From contig JASHOB010000261.1 in assembly GCA_030041335.1 (NCBI GenBank), positions 1 to 33,568 on the forward strand: a stretch of DNA of 33,568 nt, read 5' to 3'. Numbering within the stretch: the stretch's first letter is position 1; each line of letters starts with the position of its first letter. Under the pieces are notes generated by a model that saw nothing but the letters and a program-made list of their open reading frames with translations, had not been told where the DNA came from and made no database searches. The translations under genes were made by a program, and so were the position numbers. This document shows positions 8,550-33,488 of this stretch, in pieces. This DNA comes from Alphaproteobacteria bacterium (lineage in GTDB: Bacteria > Pseudomonadota > Alphaproteobacteria > ATCC43930 > CGMCC-115725).

Positions 8550-10304
8550 TCATTCATCGAGCGCCACCGCCGTTTCGATTGGCTCCTCTATGCCATCGCC
8601 GGCGATGGCGGCACCGAGTTGCGCAATCGCGCGGCTGGCGGCACCGACATCGCGGCCGGCAAAGAGATCGGCACCGGGCATTCGCCGCAGCGCTGCAGCA
8701 ACATCCTCCGCGACAAGATCGGGCGGCAGAACGATGGTCTCGGGCAGGGCTTCGGCCCAAGTACCGCCAAAGCCGACCTCGAGAAGCGGGCCCCATTCCG
8801 GGTCGTGCACCGCCTTCACCCGCAATTGCAAGGCCTGGGGTGCGGCTTTTCGCGGCCTCGCCGGCGCCGCGGCGAGGGGCGGCAAGGTCGGCCGCGCCAG
8901 GGCGCGCGCATAATGGGTAAGGTAGGCCATGGCGCGGAGCGCCCGGTCGGGGGAGGCGAAATAGGGAACGCCACGCGCGCGGCATTGGGCGATCAACTCC
9001 GGCGGTACCGGATTATCGAAACTGAGATTGGTCATGACGACGGGCTTGGCCGCACCCGATACCGCGTTGAGGATGCGTTGTCCTTTCGCCAGGCCGAACC
9101 CGGTCGGTCCCATCAGCGGCGCCAGTATCAGGCTGCCGATGCGCGGATCAGCGAGCAGCAATGGCAGCGACTTGTCGTACATTTCCGGGTCCTTGATCGC
9201 TTGCGCGGTCATGTCGAGCGGATTGGACGGCGGGGCGTAGACCGGCATCACCGGCATGAGCGCCCGGTAAATATCGGGCGACAGGGTCGGCAGATCGATG
9301 CCGATCTGGGCCGCGTAGTCGAGCGCCAGACCCTTGTAGGCGCCGGAATCGGCCATCACTGCCGGCCCCATGGTGGGCGGCGACGGGAAATAAAGGAACA
9401 GCTCGGCGGTATCGAGCAACTCCTCGATCTTGTCCACCAACACGATGGAAGCGCGCTCCGTCAATGCGCGCATTGCGCGGTAATTGCTGGTGATGGCGTA
9501 GGTGTGGGTGATGGCGGATTCACGCGCGACCGCGCTCGATCCCGCATGCAGCATCACGATCGGCTTTTTGCGGCGGCGCGCGCGCGCCGCGAGCTCGAGA
9601 AATCGCGCTGGGTCGCGCAACTGCTCGGCATAAATCGCCACCACGCCGACCGCGTGATCGTCGAGCACATAGTCGAGATAATCCTCGCAGGTGAGACCCG
9701 CTTCGTTGCCCGAGGAGACGCTGTAGGATACCGGCAGGCCGCGCTGCTGGATCGAACCGCGGAACACGCCGGCCAGTGCCCCGCTTTGGGCGATAATGGC
9801 GAGACTCGGTCGTTCGCCCGTCACCTGGCGCGGCTCCGATGCCCCGAAGGTCAGCGCCTGGCCGCCCTCGAGCGAATTGGTGACGCCGAGACAGTTGGGC
9901 CCGATGATGCCCATTCCAGCCGCGCGCGCGACACTGGCAATCCGCTCCTGCGCCGCAATTCCGTCGCCGCCGACCTCGGCAAACCCGGCGGCGAAGATCA
10001 TCACATTGCCCATGCGCTTCCTCGCGCAGCTCTCGACCGCCGCCACTACCGCCCGTTCCGGAATGCATAGCACCACGACGTCGATGCCGTCGGGCAGTTC
10101 TTCGATGGTGGGCACGCAGGGTCGGCCGAATACTTCGGTGCGATTGCGGCTCACGAGATGGAGCGCGCCGGAGAAGCCTGCCCTCTCCAGATTGCCGATG
10201 ATGTTGCCGCCCGGTTGGCCCGGCTCGGGCGAGACGCCCACGATTGCGACCGATCGCGGCCTCATCAAACGGGCAACGGCTTCGCGCATGGCGGGAGCGG
10301 ACAC
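8550..10304 (-). CDS. NDP-forming acyl-CoA synthetase-like protein lacking the ATP-grasp N-lobe
   Basis: The protein is homologous to single-chain NDP-forming acyl-CoA synthetases (acetate-CoA ligase family), which convert acyl-CoA, ADP and phosphate to acid, ATP and CoA or the reverse. Residues 1-135 form the CoA-binding Rossmann domain (PRSVAIVGVS, GIIGPNCLG). Residues 165-300 are succinyl-CoA-ligase-alpha-like, with a THT motif placing His at about 267 where the phosphohistidine is expected. Residues 310-465 are the third flavodoxin-like domain. A Pro/Ala-rich linker (about 471-490) then leads straight into the VHDPEWGPLLEVGFGG segment that normally lies late in the ATP-grasp domain. The ATP-grasp N-lobe is missing, and the protein has 584 residues where about 700 is usual. 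GTG at 10304 is chosen because AAGGGAG lies 7 nt upstream. Confidence 0.85.
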   Translation of the reverse strand: MSAPAMREAVARLMRPRSVAIVGVSPEPGQPGGNIIGNLERAGFSGALHLVSRNRTEVFGRPCVPTIEELPDGIDVVVLCIPERAVVAAVESCARKRMGNVMIFAAGFAEVGGDGIAAQERIASVARAAGMGIIGPNCLGVTNSLEGGQALTFGASEPRQVTGERPSLAIIAQSGALAGVFRGSIQQRGLPVSYSVSSGNEAGLTCEDYLDYVLDDHAVGVVAIYAEQLRDPARFLELAARARRRKKPIVMLHAGSSAVARESAITHTYAITSNYRAMRALTERASIVLVDKIEELLDTAELFLYFPSPPTMGPAVMADSGAYKGLALDYAAQIGIDLPTLSPDIYRALMPVMPVYAPPSNPLDMTAQAIKDPEMYDKSLPLLLADPRIGSLILAPLMGPTGFGLAKGQRILNAVSGAAKPVVMTNLSFDNPVPPELIAQCRARGVPYFASPDRALRAMAYLTHYARALARPTLPPLAAAPARPRKAAPQALQLRVKAVHDPEWGPLLEVGFGGTWAEALPETIVLPPDLVAEDVAAALRRMPGADLFAGRDVGAASRAIAQLGAAIAGDGIEEPIETAVALDE

Positions 10305-10439
10305 AACTTTTCTCCCTTGCGTTTTTCTGTTGCTTAGTTCATGGCAAACGATATGACATTTCGTAGCATCGCCATGTGGCACGGGTAAATAGCTCGGTTG
10401 AAATTGCGCACGCCGCCGTCAGCAATCCAGGGAAACTCG
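10305..10439. promoter_or_regulatory. divergent control region with CATGGC/GCCATG dyad
   Basis: The 135 nt between the CoA-ligase-like gene and the MetE-like operon must hold both promoters. CATGGC at 10340-10345 and GCCATG at 10371-10376 form a 6-bp inverted repeat with a 25-nt gap, and an inner ACGA / TCGT pair is nested within it. An AGGGA lies 6 nt before the ATG at 10440. A shared regulator site is plausible but not shown. Confidence 0.35.
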
Positions 10440-11570
10440 ATGGTATCAGCACCGCTTGTTCGCACCGTGCCGCCGTTTCGTGCCGACCAGGTTGGCAGTT
10501 TGCTCAAGCCCAGGGCCTTGATCGAGGCCTATAAGGCGCGCGAGAAAAAGGAAATTGCCGAGGAGAAGTTCCAGGGAATTGAGCAGGCCGCGGTCCGCGA
10601 GGTGGTGAAGCTGCAAGAGGAACTTGGCTTCAAATCGGTCACCGACGGCGAATATTCCCGCTCCGGCTGGCAGCGCGATTTCCTCGTCAGCTTTGCCAAC
10701 GTCAAGATCGTGCCGACCGCCGTGAAGATGCGCTTTCACACCGAGGACGGCGCCACCGACATGATTCCGCCGGGCCTCCACGTCGCCGGCAAGCTGTCGC
10801 GCCCGCGCCCGATCTTCATCGATGCGTTCAAGTTCCTGCGATCGGTCACCAAGGTGGTGCCGAAAATCACGATCCCGTCGCCGTCGCTGATGCATTTCCG
10901 CGGCGGCCGCAAATCGGTCGACGAGCGAGCCTATCCCGACATTGAAGAGTTCTATGGCGACCTCGCTCGCGTCTACGCTGAAGAGATCGCGGACCTTGGC
11001 CGCAACGGTTGCACTTACCTGCAGATTGACGAAACCAATTTCGCCTATTTGTGCGACCCGAGTTTGCGCGAGCAGGTGCGCGCCATCGGTGAGGATCCCG
11101 ACCAGCTACCGCACACCTATGCCCGTCTCATCAACAATTCGATCGCCGGCAAGCCCGCCAATATGACGGTCTGCATGCATCTCTGCCGCGGCAACGCCAA
11201 CAGCGCCTGGGTCGCGCAAGGCGGCTACGAGCCGGTAGCGGAGACGCTGTTCAACGAGATCGGAATTACCGGTTATTTCCTCGAATACGATTCGGCGCGC
11301 GCCGGCGGATTCGAGCCGTTGCGCTTCGTGCCCAAGGGCAAGATCGTCGTGCTCGGCCTCGTGACCACGAAGAAGGGCAAGCTCGAGACCAAGGACGAGC
11401 TCAAGCGCCGGATCGATGAGGCGGCGAAATTCGTGCCGCTGGAACAGCTCGCGCTCAGTCCGCAATGCGGATTTTCCTCGACGCTCGAAGGCAATAAGAT
11501 CACCGTTGAGGAAGAGATCGCGAAGCTCGAGCTGATCGTCGACACCGCCCGCGACGTCTGGGGCGATTGA
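10440..11570 (+). CDS. MetE C-terminal-like (cobalamin-independent methionine synthase family) zinc methyltransferase
   Basis: A 376-residue TIM-barrel protein equivalent to the catalytic C-terminal half of cobalamin-independent methionine synthase and without its N-terminal domain. The zinc ligand set can be traced: H247 and C249 in CMHLCRGN, E282 in FLEYDS and C343 in LSPQCGFSS. The N-terminal RADQVGSLLKP and the TDGEYSR segment are typical of the family, which also includes alkyl-thiol transferases such as epoxyalkane:coenzyme M transferase. It is unlikely to be the housekeeping methionine synthase, because it opens an operon with a ring-cleavage dioxygenase and RidA. ATG 10440 has AGGGA 6 nt upstream, and an in-frame TTG at 10398 is less likely. 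The thiol acceptor and the alkyl group transferred are unknown. Confidence 0.88.
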   Translation: MVSAPLVRTVPPFRADQVGSLLKPRALIEAYKAREKKEIAEEKFQGIEQAAVREVVKLQEELGFKSVTDGEYSRSGWQRDFLVSFANVKIVPTAVKMRFHTEDGATDMIPPGLHVAGKLSRPRPIFIDAFKFLRSVTKVVPKITIPSPSLMHFRGGRKSVDERAYPDIEEFYGDLARVYAEEIADLGRNGCTYLQIDETNFAYLCDPSLREQVRAIGEDPDQLPHTYARLINNSIAGKPANMTVCMHLCRGNANSAWVAQGGYEPVAETLFNEIGITGYFLEYDSARAGGFEPLRFVPKGKIVVLGLVTTKKGKLETKDELKRRIDEAAKFVPLEQLALSPQCGFSSTLEGNKITVEEEIAKLELIVDTARDVWGD

Positions 11571-11591
11571 GGAACGGGCAGGAGAACCGGC

Positions 11592-12587
11592 ATGGCGAAA
11601 TTCGCGGCAGCGTTCGGCTCATCCCACAGCGTGATGCTGGTATGCGAAGAGCAAGATTGGATCGGCAAGTTCCCGCCCTCCGATCGGCGCATGGTGCATC
11701 ACGATTTCGACGGTGAGCTGATCTCCTATGACGATCTCGTCGCCAAGTTTGCCGATCACGCCGCGCCCCTGGTCCGGCCTGACGCGATCTCGAAGCGCTG
11801 GCACAAGACCCAGGCCGCGATGGACCATATGCGCGACGAGCTGCAGGGTGCGGAGCTTGACGCTTTGATCATCGTCGGCGATGACCAGCACGAGCTGTTC
11901 CCGCCGTACCACAATCCGGCCATCGCGATCTATTACGGTGAAACCATCCGCAACACCAAGGCGCGTACGGACTTGCCGGCCGACGACTGGTATCACCGCG
12001 CCCAGCAGCGCCGCAAAGAGGATGACCGGGATGTCGACTACCCGGTCCATGCCCCTCTGGCGAAGCATCTCATCGAGGGCTTGACCGAAAGAAACTTCGA
12101 CATCACCGCGATCAACGCAATGGCGCCCGGCCAGTCCGAAGGCCATGCCTACTCGTTCATCCATCGCCGCTACTTGCGGGGTCATCGGCTGCCCATCGTG
12201 CCGATTTTCGTCAACACCTATTACCAACCGAACCCGCCCACGCCTGAGCGCTGCATCGCGCTCGGCAAGGAAATCGGCAAGCTGATCGACAGCTTTCCCC
12301 AGAACATCCGCGTCGGCTTCCTCGGCTCGGGCGGTCTCTCGCATTTCGTCGTCGACGAGAAGCTCGACCAAGGTGTCATCGATGCCTTGAAGCGCGGCGA
12401 TCTCGACTGGCTTGCCCGGTTGACGCCGAAGCGGCTGCAGGCCGGCACGTCCGAGATTCGCAACTGGCTCGTGGTTGCCGGCGCCGTTGCGGGGACCGAC
12501 ATGAAAATCACCTGGTCCGACTACATTCCAGGCTATCGCACCCCCGCCTTGACCGGAACCGGTCTCGGTTTCGTCCGTTGGTCGTGA
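11592..12587 (+). CDS. class III extradiol ring-cleavage dioxygenase (LigB-like catalytic subunit)
   Basis: A 331-residue protein of the LigB superfamily, Fe(II) enzymes that open catecholic rings beside the hydroxyls. The catalytic residues can be matched to protocatechuate 4,5-dioxygenase LigB: H12 in FGSSHSV, H100 in VGDDQHELF and E288 in GTSEIRNWL as iron ligands, and H251 in GSGGLSHFV as the catalytic base. No LigA-type small subunit is fused or adjacent. It starts at ATG 11592, 21 nt after the MetE-like stop and preceded by GGCAGGAGAA, so the two are cotranscribed. The substrate is likely a catechol- or gallate-like compound, but this is inference from the family. Confidence 0.9.
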   Translation: MAKFAAAFGSSHSVMLVCEEQDWIGKFPPSDRRMVHHDFDGELISYDDLVAKFADHAAPLVRPDAISKRWHKTQAAMDHMRDELQGAELDALIIVGDDQHELFPPYHNPAIAIYYGETIRNTKARTDLPADDWYHRAQQRRKEDDRDVDYPVHAPLAKHLIEGLTERNFDITAINAMAPGQSEGHAYSFIHRRYLRGHRLPIVPIFVNTYYQPNPPTPERCIALGKEIGKLIDSFPQNIRVGFLGSGGLSHFVVDEKLDQGVIDALKRGDLDWLARLTPKRLQAGTSEIRNWLVVAGAVAGTDMKITWSDYIPGYRTPALTGTGLGFVRWS

Positions 12588-12609
12588 ATAGAGACAAGGG
12601 AGGCACGAT

Positions 12610-12990
12610 ATGCGTCAGCAAAGTATTCACCTGCCGGGCGTGAGCCACAATGCGCCCATCCCTCTGGGAGCGCGGGTCGGCAATATCCTCGCCACGGGCG
12701 GTGTCAGCGGCATCGATCCTTCGACCGGCAAGGTCGCCGAGGGCGCCGACGCCCAGGCAAAGTTCGCCTTCCAGAACATGGGCAATATACTGAAGCAGGG
12801 CGGCATGGATTGGGGCGATGTCGTCAAGCTCACCGTCTTTCTCGTCGACGACGCGCATCGCGGTGCCATCAACAAATACTGGCTGGAAGTGTATCCGGAC
12901 GAGCATCACCGTCCGGCGCGACACTCGCTGGTGCAAAATTTGCGTGGCGGCGTGCTCCTGCAGCTCGAGGCGCTGGCAGTCGCCAAATAG
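12610..12990 (+). CDS. RidA family (YjgF/YER057c/UK114) protein
   Basis: A 126-residue RidA-like trimeric deaminase, whose best-known members hydrolyse reactive enamines and imines to keto acids. The conserved ATGGVSGIDP, the MDWGDVVKLTVFLVD segment and the C-terminal PARHS and LQLEALAVAK blocks are present. The Arg of the PAR motif and the late Glu match the residues that bind the substrate carboxylate and activate water in RidA. It begins 22 nt after the dioxygenase stop codon, with GGGAGGC upstream, and is the last gene of the three-gene operon before a strong terminator. Many catabolic operons carry a dedicated RidA paralogue. Its substrate here is unknown. Confidence 0.93.
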   Translation: MRQQSIHLPGVSHNAPIPLGARVGNILATGGVSGIDPSTGKVAEGADAQAKFAFQNMGNILKQGGMDWGDVVKLTVFLVDDAHRGAINKYWLEVYPDEHHRPARHSLVQNLRGGVLLQLEALAVAK

Positions 12991-13028
12991 ACATCGAATT
13001 AAGCGGCGCGGAGAAAGCCGCGACTTGG

Positions 13029-13053
13029 GGGCGCCTTCGGGCGCCCTTTTTTT
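13029..13053 (+). terminator. intrinsic terminator with UUCG loop
   Basis: A perfect 7-bp stem, GGGCGCC (13029-13035) with GGCGCCC (13040-13046), closes a TTCG tetraloop and is followed directly by seven T residues (13047-13053). It is placed 38 nt after the RidA stop codon and ends the MetE-like/LigB/RidA operon. It also separates that operon from the membrane glycosyltransferase. Confidence 0.93.
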
Positions 13054-13084
13054 CCACCGCTATTGCGTTAGGCTCGAAGCCGTT

Positions 13085-14596
13085 ATGGCCCGCCGCAACC
13101 TCCGCCAAATCAGATCGGAAACCGACGAAGAGCGGATGTTCCGCTGGGCATTATGGTCGGTATTTCTAATCACGGTCGCGCGCCTGGTATGGCTGGCGCT
13201 GGACCGGACCGATCTCTACCCCGACGAGGCGCAGTACTGGGTCTGGGCGCAGCATCTCGACTGGGGCTATTACTCCAAACCACCGATGGTCGCCTGGCTG
13301 ATCGCCGCTTCGACGCGGCTCTTTGGCGATACCGGACCGGCGGTGCGAATTTTTTCGCCGCTCCTGCATTTTGCCACGGCGATGACGATCTACAGCTGCG
13401 CCAAGCAGCTTTACGATTTGCGCACGGCCTACTGGTCCGCGCTGACCTATGCGGCGCTGCCCGGCGTCACCGTGTCGGCGACGATCATGTCGACCGACGC
13501 GCCGATGTTGTTGTGCTGGGCAGTTGCACTGCTAGCGTTCCTGCGCGCCCGCGCCAGCCTTGACCGTCGGTGGTGGCTGGTGGTGGGGATCGCCATCGGA
13601 CTGGGCCTGCTGTCGAAATACGCCATGGCCTATTGGCTCTTATGCGCGGTCATTTTCCTCGGGCTGTGGCGGGAAGAGCGACGACATCTGCCCATGCTGC
13701 TGGGCGCGACCGCGCTTGGTCTCGTCATCTACGCCCCTAATTTTCTTTGGAATTTCGCCAATGAGTTTCTCAGCTATCGGCATACCGAGGCCAATGCCTC
13801 GCTGGGCGGGCCACTGATCCATCCGAGGCATCTTGTCGAATTTCTCGGCGCGCAGTTCGGGGTGTTCGGGCCGCTTCTCTTTGGCGCTCTCGTCGCCATG
13901 ATGGTACTCGCCGGCCGGACGCTGTCCGACCGCCGCGCCCAGTTGCTGGCGTGTTTCACCTTGCCGCCGCTCGCCCTCATGCTGGTCTTGAGCCTCGTGT
14001 CGCGGGCGCAAGCGAATTGGGCGGCGCCGTCCTATATCGCCGCGACCATTCTCGTCGTGGCCTGGTTGCTGGCCGAGGGCCGGCGAATCATCATCACCGT
14101 GTCGCTCGCGCTGCATCTCGTCGCGGCATTGCTGGTTGCGGTGGGGTTGCGCAATATCGCTGCGGTCGCCGGCGTCAATCTTCCCGTGCAATACGATCCT
14201 CTGCACCGGCTGCAGGGCTGGCGCACACTCGGCCGCGCGATCTCGGCCGAACTGGCGCGGCATCCTGGAGCGATTTTGATGGCTGACAACCGCGAGTTGC
14301 TCGCGGCGCTGATGTTCTACGTCGAGCCGCATCCGTTTGATGCGCTCGAATGGGACCCAAACGGCATTCACGATCAGTTTGAGCTGAGCCAGCGGGCCGC
14401 CCTCGACGTCGGCGCCGATTTCCTTTTGGTCAGCCAAAATCCGCACGATCTCGGCCCCATTCTGGCACGCTTCAAGGAGGTGGGGCCGCCGGAAACCATC
14501 ACCATCTTCATCGGCCGACCGGGGGCCGTCGCGTCGCCGGCAGAGCAACGCCGTTATGCGGTCTATTATCTCAAAGGCTTCAAGGGCTTTCCCTGA
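13085..14596 (+). CDS. ArnT/PMT-type (GT39-like) membrane glycosyltransferase
   Basis: A 503-residue polytopic inner-membrane protein of the dolichyl/undecaprenyl-phosphate sugar transferase group (GT39/GT83, ArnT-like). The first periplasmic loop carries the catalytic acidic pair in LYPDEAQYWVWAQ (D47, E48), followed by WGYYSKPPMVAW, the usual substrate-loop pattern. About ten hydrophobic segments follow, then a soluble C-terminal part from about residue 390. It would move a sugar from a polyprenyl-phosphate carrier to lipid A, glycan or protein. The acceptor is unknown. ATG 13085 is the first start after the upstream terminator. Its last 17 nt overlap the end of the convergent PAP2 gene. 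Confidence 0.9.
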   Translation: MARRNLRQIRSETDEERMFRWALWSVFLITVARLVWLALDRTDLYPDEAQYWVWAQHLDWGYYSKPPMVAWLIAASTRLFGDTGPAVRIFSPLLHFATAMTIYSCAKQLYDLRTAYWSALTYAALPGVTVSATIMSTDAPMLLCWAVALLAFLRARASLDRRWWLVVGIAIGLGLLSKYAMAYWLLCAVIFLGLWREERRHLPMLLGATALGLVIYAPNFLWNFANEFLSYRHTEANASLGGPLIHPRHLVEFLGAQFGVFGPLLFGALVAMMVLAGRTLSDRRAQLLACFTLPPLALMLVLSLVSRAQANWAAPSYIAATILVVAWLLAEGRRIIITVSLALHLVAALLVAVGLRNIAAVAGVNLPVQYDPLHRLQGWRTLGRAISAELARHPGAILMADNRELLAALMFYVEPHPFDALEWDPNGIHDQFELSQRAALDVGADFLLVSQNPHDLGPILARFKEVGPPETITIFIGRPGAVASPAEQRRYAVYYLKGFKGFP

Positions 14597-32465: not shown

Positions 32466-33488
32466 TCACGAACGCACCCTGACGACCCGCCGCCACGGCA
32501 AGGTCGCGCGCTCGCTCCGCCAGCGGCCTGCCGCCGCCAGCGCCACGATGCGCCGCGCCAGCATCGTCGATGCGTCTGCGGCCACGCTGCGCTCGAAGCC
32601 GTCGCCCTCTCGGTCATAGTTTAATTGCGCGCTTTCCATGAGCGCGCGATCCTGCGCCAGGATTTTCGGTTCCTCGTCGCTCCAGCGCGCCCTGATCCCG
32701 TCGCGCGGCTCGGCCATCGGCACGAGCGAGACCAGCCATTCCTGGCGGCAGGTATTCGGCCCGGTCGGCACGAAGTGCAGCACGATCGTCATCCCGCGCT
32801 CGCCGGGAAATTCGATCATGACGCGATCCGGCAGCGCGAACGTCGCCTTGAACCAGCATTGCGACGGAACCGGATCGTCCTCGCCCGCGGTGGCGGGACC
32901 GAACAGGATCATGCCGGTATCGGTGAGCCGCGTTTCGTACGCCTGCTCGGTGAAGCCGACAAGCTGCGTCTTGAAGAATTGCCCGTGCGCCCACGGATGG
33001 GCGAAGGCCGGATGGCACCAATCGAGATTGTTTTCGATCCCGAGCATCGCGGCACACGCCATCGCAATCGTGCCCTGCTGCCAAACAAAGCGCTCGAATC
33101 CCGGCACGCGCGCCGGGGCGCTGGGCTCGGGTTCGCCTTCGCCCATCCACACCCAGACATAGGAATCTTGTTCGATGCAAGGAAAGGCCGGCACGCTTGC
33201 GTCCGGCGGCGGCGCACTGGCGGCGGGCAGCGAAGGTATGTGGACACAGTGACCGGCGCCGTCATACCGCCACCCGTGATAGCCACACGCAAGGCTGCCG
33301 CTTTGGACCGCACCGAGGGACAGCTTCGCGCCGCGATGGCAGCAGCGATCGATCAGCGCACCCGGAGCGCCGTTGGCGGCGCGGAACAGTACAAGATCGT
33401 TATCGAGCACGCGGCAGGCGAGCGGCCCTGACGCGAGCCGCGAGGCCGGCGCGGCGATGTACCAGAACGGCCGTGGCATTTGAGACAT
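32466..33488 (-). CDS. Rieske non-heme iron oxygenase, alpha subunit
   Basis: A 340-residue Rieske oxygenase (phenylpropionate/vanillate O-demethylase-like). The Rieske cluster is C49-x-H51 in RCCHRGAKL and C68-x2-H71 in CGYHGW. The mononuclear iron motif D156(x)2H159(x)4H164 is present in NNLDWCHPAFAH. Such enzymes hydroxylate or demethylate aromatic or amine substrates with electrons from a separate reductase, none of which is seen nearby. ATG 33488 is chosen because the family-typical MPRPFWY follows at once. The upstream in-frame TTG at 33548 is itself part of the -35 element. The promoter region carries a 35-bp dyad. The gene ends 138 nt before the membrane protein gene. Confidence 0.92.
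   Translation of the reverse strand: MSQMPRPFWYIAAPASRLASGPLACRVLDNDLVLFRAANGAPGALIDRCCHRGAKLSLGAVQSGSLACGYHGWRYDGAGHCVHIPSLPAASAPPPDASVPAFPCIEQDSYVWVWMGEGEPEPSAPARVPGFERFVWQQGTIAMACAAMLGIENNLDWCHPAFAHPWAHGQFFKTQLVGFTEQAYETRLTDTGMILFGPATAGEDDPVPSQCWFKATFALPDRVMIEFPGERGMTIVLHFVPTGPNTCRQEWLVSLVPMAEPRDGIRARWSDEEPKILAQDRALMESAQLNYDREGDGFERSVAADASTMLARRIVALAAAGRWRSERATLPWRRVVRVRS

What the first reader, a model, noticed from the sequence alone, without database searches (positions are those of the whole stretch)
10440..12990. Uncharacterised operon: MetE-like Zn methyltransferase, LigB-type dioxygenase and RidA
The three genes are 20-22 nt apart and end at a strong terminator. All catalytic residues are traceable: zinc ligands H247, C249, E282 and C343 in the first, and H12, H100, H251 and E288 in the second. 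A thiol methyltransferase next to a ring-cleavage enzyme suggests removal of an alkyl group from a methoxy- or amino-aromatic followed by ring opening, with RidA removing a reactive enamine. The combination does not match a pathway I know, and the divergent CoA-ligase-like gene could act on the product.
Basis: partly seen in the sequence, partly recalled or inferred. Interest (0 to 1): 0.65.

Follow-up and report, generated by a model that had tools for sequence, protein, structure and literature searches.

The report
Methyl-transfer and ring-cleavage gene trio
Three adjacent bacterial genes pair a small methionine-synthase-like enzyme with a ring-opening-type enzyme, and relatives of the methyl enzyme recur beside aromatic-degradation genes, hinting that it receives methyl groups stripped from plant aromatics.

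Summary
The trio is real: a core-MetE-like protein (10440-11570), a LigB-type extradiol dioxygenase-like protein (11592-12587) and a RidA-family protein (12610-12990), 21 and 22 nt apart, followed by a terminator-like hairpin. The MetE-like protein keeps the four zinc ligands and the homocysteine-binding residues (S20, E71, D197) and lacks the folate-binding half, so homocysteine is the predicted acceptor. One claimed residue is wrong: LigB iron ligand H61 aligns with Q99, not H100. Among 61 genomes the trio occurs in the window's genome and one congener, but the pairings recur. MetE-like genes lie within 6 kb of a ring-cleavage gene at 13 of 108 places against 0 of 40 controls. Arrangements include ligA-ligB-transporter-MetE, MetE-ligM, Rieske-MetE and, in one actinobacterium, ligB/amidohydrolase/MetE. 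Best reading: methoxy-derived methyl goes to homocysteine, making methionine, while the ring is opened. Whether the donor is methyl-THF, the aromatic ether or a ring-opened methyl ester is open; relatives beside metF, metK or ahcY keep plain methionine synthesis alive as a rival. Nine paper searches, partly capped listings, showed me no report of this link. New variant of a known kind.

The parts
10440..11570 (+). core-MetE-like, predicted zinc-dependent homocysteine methyltransferase, 376 aa
   Evidence: NF005085 (PRK06520) 425.9 bits, cut-off 313; 1ypx 310.7 bits; Foldseek top hit 1ypx, then MetE; zinc ligands H247 C249 E282 C343 and Hcy site S20 E71 D197
11592..12587 (+). class III (LigB-type) extradiol dioxygenase-like protein, 331 aa, with Gln at the LigB H61 position
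   Evidence: PF02900 55.4 bits; 1b4u by profile 83 bits; Foldseek DesB/LigAB; H12, H185, H251, E288 invariant in 22 rows
12610..12990 (+). RidA-family protein, 126 aa
   Evidence: PF01042 60.2 bits, below the TIGR00004 cut-off (54.9 of 106.25); R104 aligns with the PAR motif of Rid proteins
13027..13048 (+). intrinsic-terminator-like hairpin followed by a T run
10383..10439 (.). 57-nt divergent intergenic region; no sigma-70-like site found in 10300-13150 and no Rfam match in the window at gathering scores
8550..10382 (-). divergent ADP-forming acyl-CoA-synthetase-like gene with only a partial ATP-grasp match; next to the trio in the congener too; role in the unit not shown

Best explanation
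The trio is a small catabolic unit for a methoxylated (lignin-type) aromatic acid. The core-MetE-like enzyme binds homocysteine as a zinc thiolate and takes up the methyl group that comes from the methoxy substituent, giving methionine; the LigB-type enzyme opens the ring with O2; the RidA-family protein acts on an enol/enamine-type product of ring opening. Shown here: gene order, families, intact zinc and homocysteine sites, predicted folds, and recurrent neighbourhood of the MetE-like family and of this LigB branch with aromatic catabolism. Inferred: the substrate, that the genes act in one pathway, and that the methyl comes from the aromatic. Not resolved: whether it arrives as 5-methyl-THF from a LigM-type demethylase elsewhere in the genome, directly from the ether, or from a methyl ester made by ring opening.
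For: The zinc and homocysteine-site residues are kept (site positions from passages of Price 2021, PMC7857596). MetE-like genes within 6 kb of ring-cleavage genes: 13 of 108 against 0 of 40 control places (Fisher p 0.013; 12 of 107, p 0.018, without the window); any aromatic marker 23 of 108 against 1 of 40 (p 0.003); 6 of the 13 lie outside the window's family. Arrangements: ligA-ligB-Liv transporter-MetE (L154, similar L151 near a VanA_C oxygenase); HpaE-LigA-LigB-type...MetE (L155, L157, partly L164); Rieske and MetE 2 nt apart (L192, L202); MetE followed by ligM in the window's own genome (L094, NF047885 720.7 bits, cut-off 580) and in the congener (L199, ligM cut by the contig end); LigB-type, LigY/J-type amidohydrolase and MetE in an actinobacterial MAG (L042). 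In the tree the window protein lies in a supported clade of four (97/87) with L105 and L110 (beside LigB, Rieske and other genes read as aromatic-catabolic) and L112 (beside an MFS gene of the same cluster as those of L105/L110). The 330-aa LigB branch is enriched for RidA 9/32, LigY/J-type amidohydrolase 10/32, Rieske 8/32 and RraA 8/32, each 0/40 in controls. The genome has a MetH-type PF02965 domain and 14 MetE-like matches, more than methionine synthesis should need.
Against: 85 of 108 MetE-like places had none of my aromatic markers within 6 kb (many contigs are short). Three relatives inside the same 16-row clade sit with ahcY, two of them also with metK and one of these with metF, and a fourth further off sits with metF, which fits ordinary methionine synthesis. 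The label 'ring' is not significantly clustered on the tree (82 of 500 shuffles as low). MetE is near only 3 of 32 loci of the LigB branch (p 0.08), two of them the window and its congener. The trio is known from two genomes of one genus. The dioxygenase-like protein lacks the canonical second iron His. No transcript, growth or biochemical data.
Confidence: 0.45

Rival explanations
1. The MetE-like protein is an ordinary auxiliary methionine synthase that takes methyl from 5-methyl-THF made by MetF; its position next to the dioxygenase-like gene is incidental or only co-regulated.
For: Relatives at about 65% beside metK and ahcY (L106, L109) and metF (L106), one at 64% beside an ahcY end (L116), and a 51% relative beside metF (L143); homocysteine site intact.
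Against: No folate-binding N-terminal domain; a MetH-type PF02965 domain is present in the genome; 14 MetE-like matches in one genome; no riboswitch family found in the window or in seven related loci at gathering scores; repeated placement in ring-cleavage gene clusters.
Confidence: 0.3
2. A MesD/MesX-like arrangement: the O2-using LigB-type protein produces or releases the methyl donor used by the core synthase for methionine supply, not catabolism.
For: MesD is a core synthase that needs a partner protein, MesX, and oxygen (passages of PMC7857596); here a core synthase sits with an O2-dependent-type enzyme.
Against: The window protein is not MesD by score (62.3 bits on PRK09121, which I take as the MesD model from recall; cut-off 392); the partner family differs; the LigB branch mostly occurs without MetE nearby (3 of 32 loci with it).
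Confidence: 0.08
3. A nitrogen-containing ring is degraded: the dioxygenase-like protein opens an aminophenol- or hydroxypyridine-type ring and RidA deaminates the product; the MetE-like protein removes an N- or O-methyl.
For: RidA is a frequent neighbour of this LigB branch (9 of 32); Foldseek also finds 2-aminophenol 1,6-dioxygenases.
Against: The best structural and sequence matches are gallate and protocatechuate enzymes; neighbours are LigY/J-type and RraA-type proteins, related to enzymes of carboxylated, oxygenated rings.
Confidence: 0.12
4. Chance neighbours without a common function.
For: Exact trio in one genus only.
Against: About 20-nt spacing and common terminator-like hairpin, conservation in a congener at 82-85% while the genes beyond the CoA-ligase-like gene and RidA differ, and independent MetE-LigB pairings.
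Confidence: 0.05

Closest known systems
NF005085/PRK06520 family, annotated 'cobalamin-independent methionine synthase II family' on plasmids; PDB 1ypx (Listeria, putative)
   Same: 425.9 bits, over the cut-off; same fold and length; zinc and homocysteine sites
   Different: The family's function is a name only, as far as I saw; this member sits with a ring-cleavage-type gene and no met genes
Core methionine synthases MesA-MesD (Price 2021, PMC7857596; passages read)
   Same: Catalytic half of MetE only; zinc ligands and homocysteine-binding Ser, Glu, Asp as described for MetE and MesD (MesB and MesC vary)
   Different: Not MesD by score; MesD's partner is MesX, here a LigB-type protein; donor unknown
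LigM/DesA aryl O-demethylases with methyl-THF
   Same: Methyl removal from methoxy-aromatics; ligM is next to a MetE paralog in this genome
   Different: Unrelated protein family; no ligM in the window unit
LigAB and DesB gallate dioxygenase; SYK-6 LigY pathway (OH-DDVA)
   Same: Same fold; relatives' clusters carry LigY-type hydrolases (one tested: 5vn5, 300.6 bits)
   Different: 331 aa, Gln at the H61 position, no LigA gene in the trio, about 20% identity; LigZ itself was not available to compare
Pseudomonas NGC7 MgaAB-MgaC syringate route (PMC12314914; passages read)
   Same: Ring opening of a methoxylated ring gives CHMOD, in which the methoxy group has become a methyl ester
   Different: There CHMOD is hydrolysed with release of methanol; here a methyl-acceptor-type enzyme is present

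Membership tests
Core methionine synthase (kind) | Zinc ligands His, Cys, Glu, Cys | tested here: met
   H247 C249 E282 C343, invariant in 107 of 107
Core methionine synthase (kind) | Homocysteine-binding Ser, Glu, Asp | tested here: met
   S20, E71, D197; S in 98, E in 103, D in 107 of 107 rows
Core methionine synthase (kind) | No folate-binding N-terminal domain | tested here: met
   376 aa; only Meth_synt_2 found
Core methionine synthase (kind) | Makes methionine in vivo or in vitro | not testable with these tools
   Needs enzyme assay or complementation
MesD | Over PRK09121 (taken as the MesD model from recall) and MesX as partner | tested here: not met
   62.3 bits, cut-off 392; the neighbours in the unit are LigB-type and RidA
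NF005085 subfamily | Score over curated cut-off | tested here: met
   425.9 over 313
Class III extradiol dioxygenase | LigB fold and family score | tested here: met
   55.4 over 26.3 bits; Foldseek DesB, LigAB; all ten NCBIfam LigB-type models listed stay below their cut-offs
Class III extradiol dioxygenase | Two-His-one-carboxylate iron site (LigB H12, H61, E242; roles and E242 recalled) | tested here: not met
   H12 and E288 kept; the H61 position is Gln 99
Class III extradiol dioxygenase | Ring cleavage with iron and O2 | not testable with these tools
   Needs assay
Rid family deaminase | Score over Rid model and catalytic Arg | tested here: inconclusive
   Pfam over cut-off, TIGR00004 below cut-off; R104 in the PAR motif
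LigM-type O-demethylase in the unit | LigM-type protein present in the trio | tested here: not met
   Not among the families of the three proteins; two matches elsewhere in the genome

The most novel reading that the evidence does not exclude
The MetE-like enzyme is a cofactor-free aryl O-demethylase, or acts on the methyl ester that ring opening of a methoxylated ring creates, passing the methyl straight to homocysteine. Genomes with MetE beside pca- or lig-type genes (G010, G011, G019, G024, G028) had no LigM match at E 1e-60, so a LigM methyl-THF route is not seen there, though Rieske oxygenase genes lie near MetE in some. That would be a new class of aromatic demethylation coupled to methionine formation.
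Probability: 0.18. Interest if true: 0.8.

Novelty: new variant of a known kind. Interest (0 to 1): 0.5.

Why it matters
The function of core-MetE homologs in aerobic bacteria is unsettled: a 2025 paper (PMC12478193, passages read) calls it questionable, and a Phaeobacter mutant of one such gene kept its lag-phase response (PMC12366255, passages read). A link to aromatic catabolism could explain why one genome holds 14 matches, would correct a common 'methionine synthase' label, and could show how bacteria save rather than burn the methyl groups of lignin aromatics.

Tried and rejected
The trio was looked for in 17 loci from genome contigs and found in one (L031). A riboswitch link was looked for and not found. 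LigZ orthology of the dioxygenase-like protein could not be tested: no LigZ sequence was at hand; in five further LigB-branch loci I saw, by eye only, no LigY-type gene within about 1.5 kb. MesD membership was rejected by score. Shortage of other methionine synthases was set aside because a PF02965 (MetH activation domain) match is present (150.2 bits, with one stop inside the matched stretch, near the start of a contig); the MetE N-terminal domain PF08267 matches only below its cut-off (26.2 of 27 bits). Paper searches showed me no paper tying MetE-like proteins to ring cleavage, but searches listed only 20 of 41, 78 and 87 papers, and I read listings with abstract starts plus found passages of seven papers, so this is not proof of absence.

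Limits of the counts. One search used 113 loci: the window, L093-L124 (some of them fetched for LigB genes) and L143-L222, chosen from the rows, most but not all. It gave 108 distinct MetE anchors in 55 genomes; anchors with identical last 120 residues were dropped, and proteins under 150 bits were not counted. The 40 control regions were picked by me, at roughly every fourth listed row, from PALP-family matches (a capped list) in 30 genomes; the anchor was the gene nearest the middle of the region, which is not the PALP gene where a contig end shortened it. Relatives are not independent. Markers came from my own gene caller and phmmer with example proteins; examples of LigB, LigA, intradiol, LigM, Rieske, MetF, MetK and AhcY were checked against Pfam or NCBIfam, while CMD, PcaB, PcaD, the LigI label and the 'aromatic' MFS label rest on my reading (the LigI-like example scores 240.7 of 500 on 4-sulfomuconolactone hydrolase). 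In one search the 32 dioxygenase loci include four Bradyrhizobium places and the window with its congener, reach into other phyla than the controls, and were chosen by similarity to the window protein. In one search the 107 rows are those of at least 330 aa plus L042.
Full report
What is there. Three + strand genes at 10440-11570, 11592-12587 and 12610-12990 lie 21 and 22 nt apart and are followed by a hairpin with a T run at 13027-13048. A gene for an ADP-forming acyl-CoA-synthetase-like protein diverges from the first after 57 nt. No Rfam family reaches its gathering score in the window.

First gene. It scores 425.9 bits on NF005085 (cut-off 313), matches PDB 1ypx at 310.7 bits, and its model (mean pLDDT 94.1) has 1ypx and then MetE structures as nearest folds. 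It is only the catalytic half of MetE. The four zinc ligands are invariant in 107 of 107 aligned relatives, and S20, E71 and D197, which align with the homocysteine-binding residues listed by Price 2021 (passages), are kept in 98, 103 and 107 of 107 rows (8 of the rows without S20 have a gap there). I conclude, by inference from family knowledge, that homocysteine is the acceptor and methionine the product. The donor is unknown.

Second gene. It belongs to a 330-aa branch of the LigB superfamily (profile match to 1b4u 83 bits; model pLDDT 91.7, nearest folds DesB and LigAB). H12, H185, H251 and E288 are invariant in 22 aligned relatives. Gln is usual in this branch (23 of 29; His in 5, Glu in 1), so either Gln serves at the metal or the chemistry differs. 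This is a caution about calling it a standard dioxygenase.

Third gene. A RidA-family protein (60.2 bits Pfam; 54.9 bits, below cut-off, on TIGR00004) with the Arg of the PAR motif. RidA genes lie within 6 kb of 9 of 32 loci of this LigB branch and 0 of 40 controls (p 0.0003); LigY/J-type amidohydrolases in 10 of 32, Rieske oxygenases in 8, RraA-type in 8, each 0 of 40; MetE in 3 of 32 (p 0.08). One such amidohydrolase, of Ramlibacter L032, matches SYK-6 LigY best (5vn5, 300.6 bits; 4-oxalomesaconate hydratase 216.2). I read the branch as part of meta-cleavage pathways for carboxylated aromatics.

How conserved is the trio. Among 61 genomes it is found in the window's genome and G001, same genus. 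In G019 the LigB-type gene (55%) and RidA (57.6%) are together without MetE.

MetE-like relatives. The window's genome has 14 matches (two are pieces of one place, one is partial) plus a MetH-type PF02965 domain. Neighbour counts are: ring-cleavage genes near 13 of 108 MetE-like anchors against 0 of 40 control anchors (p 0.013), any aromatic marker 23 of 108 against 1 of 40 (p 0.003). Single markers do not reach significance one by one except Liv-type transporters (11 of 108 against 0 of 40, p 0.027). Without the window 12 of 107 (p 0.018) and 22 of 107 (p 0.004); outside the window's family 6 and 8 of 53. Twelve of 55 genomes have a ring-linked copy. One of the 13, L156, is a loose intradiol neighbour, not one gene cluster. 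Clear arrangements are: LigA and LigB (PF07746, PF02900), a Liv-type transporter and MetE in one direction in L154, with a similar order in L151 near a VanA_C oxygenase; an HpaE-type dehydrogenase (793.7 bits, cut-off 638.35), LigA, LigB and MetE in L155, with L157 and L164 alike by their gene order; intradiol dioxygenase genes (in L111 over the cut-off for protocatechuate 3,4-dioxygenase alpha, 209.2 against 126.25 bits) divergent to MetE in L111, L113 and L115; PRK13366-type LigB (490.9 bits) with genes that I read as LigA- and LigI-like beside MetE in L105, and alike in L110; Rieske and MetE 2 nt apart in L192 and L202; MetE then ligM in L094 and in the congener's L199, the latter cut by the contig end; and LigB, LigY/J-type amidohydrolase and a divergent MetE (185.2 bits, below cut-off) in the actinobacterial L042.

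Against this, three relatives inside the same supported 16-row clade lie with ahcY (two of them also with metK, one of these with metF), and L143 with metF. They fit a plain methionine cycle. The tree puts the window protein in a clade of four (97/87) with L105, L110 and L112; the first two lie in aromatic clusters and L112 beside an MFS gene of the same cluster as theirs. The ring label overall is not significantly clustered (82 of 500 shuffles as low).

LigM. Of 289 class genomes 7 have a LigM match at E 1e-60 (5 have one over the cut-off); of 61 relatives 4, all in the window's genus (3 over the cut-off). Of the 7 class genomes, 4 also have a MetE-like match (G000, G223, G282, G316), against 38 of 289 overall. 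The window's genome has two LigM matches. G010, G011, G016, G019, G024 and G028, which hold MetE relatives of 64-68% identity, mostly in aromatic or transporter settings but in G010, G016 and G019 also beside met-cycle genes, have none, so LigM is not seen as a methyl source there.

Reading. The most likely function is uptake of a methoxy-derived methyl group by homocysteine, linked to ring opening of the same substrate. Published work shows that ring opening of 3-O-methylgallate gives CHMOD, with the methoxy group now in a methyl ester, later hydrolysed with methanol release (PMC12314914, passages). A zinc-homocysteine enzyme beside such a dioxygenase could take that methyl instead; this is my inference and untested. 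Bmt shows that homocysteine can take methyl directly from small donors (PMC12366255, passages), but it is another family. The plain-synthase reading stays a serious rival.

Noticed in passing
window 11592-12587 and 28 relatives: Gln replaces the second iron-binding His (LigB H61 position) in most of this 330-aa LigB branch (23 of 29 with the window); 5 of 29 keep His.
   Followed up: partly
window's genome G000, 14 matches: Large expansion of MetE-like genes, several beside Rieske oxygenases, Liv-type transporters or a second, more distant MetE-type gene.
   Followed up: partly
L210 1-1710 (congener G001): A LigY/J-type amidohydrolase (cut by the contig end) lies just upstream of another MetE-like copy; not counted among the ring-linked places.
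   Followed up: no
L137 8001-9104 (Klebsiella pneumoniae plasmid NZ_CP084844.1): A 43% MetE-like relative lies just upstream of urtABCDE and near IS elements; 31 Klebsiella plasmid records have a hit.
   Followed up: no
window 8550-10382: Acyl-CoA-synthetase-like gene with only a partial ATP-grasp match (residues 514-578); may be a shortened or non-standard member.
   Followed up: no
L133, L134, L135 and L032: Recurrent cluster of LigB-type gene, LigY/J-type amidohydrolase and RraA-type genes, with RidA in three of the four, in Rhodococcus, Bradyrhizobium, Polymorphobacter and Ramlibacter; looks like a meta-cleavage pathway that I could not name.
   Followed up: partly
L106, L109, L143: A 467-478 aa protein of similar start sits beside MetE-like, metK or metF genes; possibly a regulator (my reading).
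   Followed up: no
window 32466-33479: A Rieske-type oxygenase gene at the window's end, read from its sequence, not searched.
   Followed up: no
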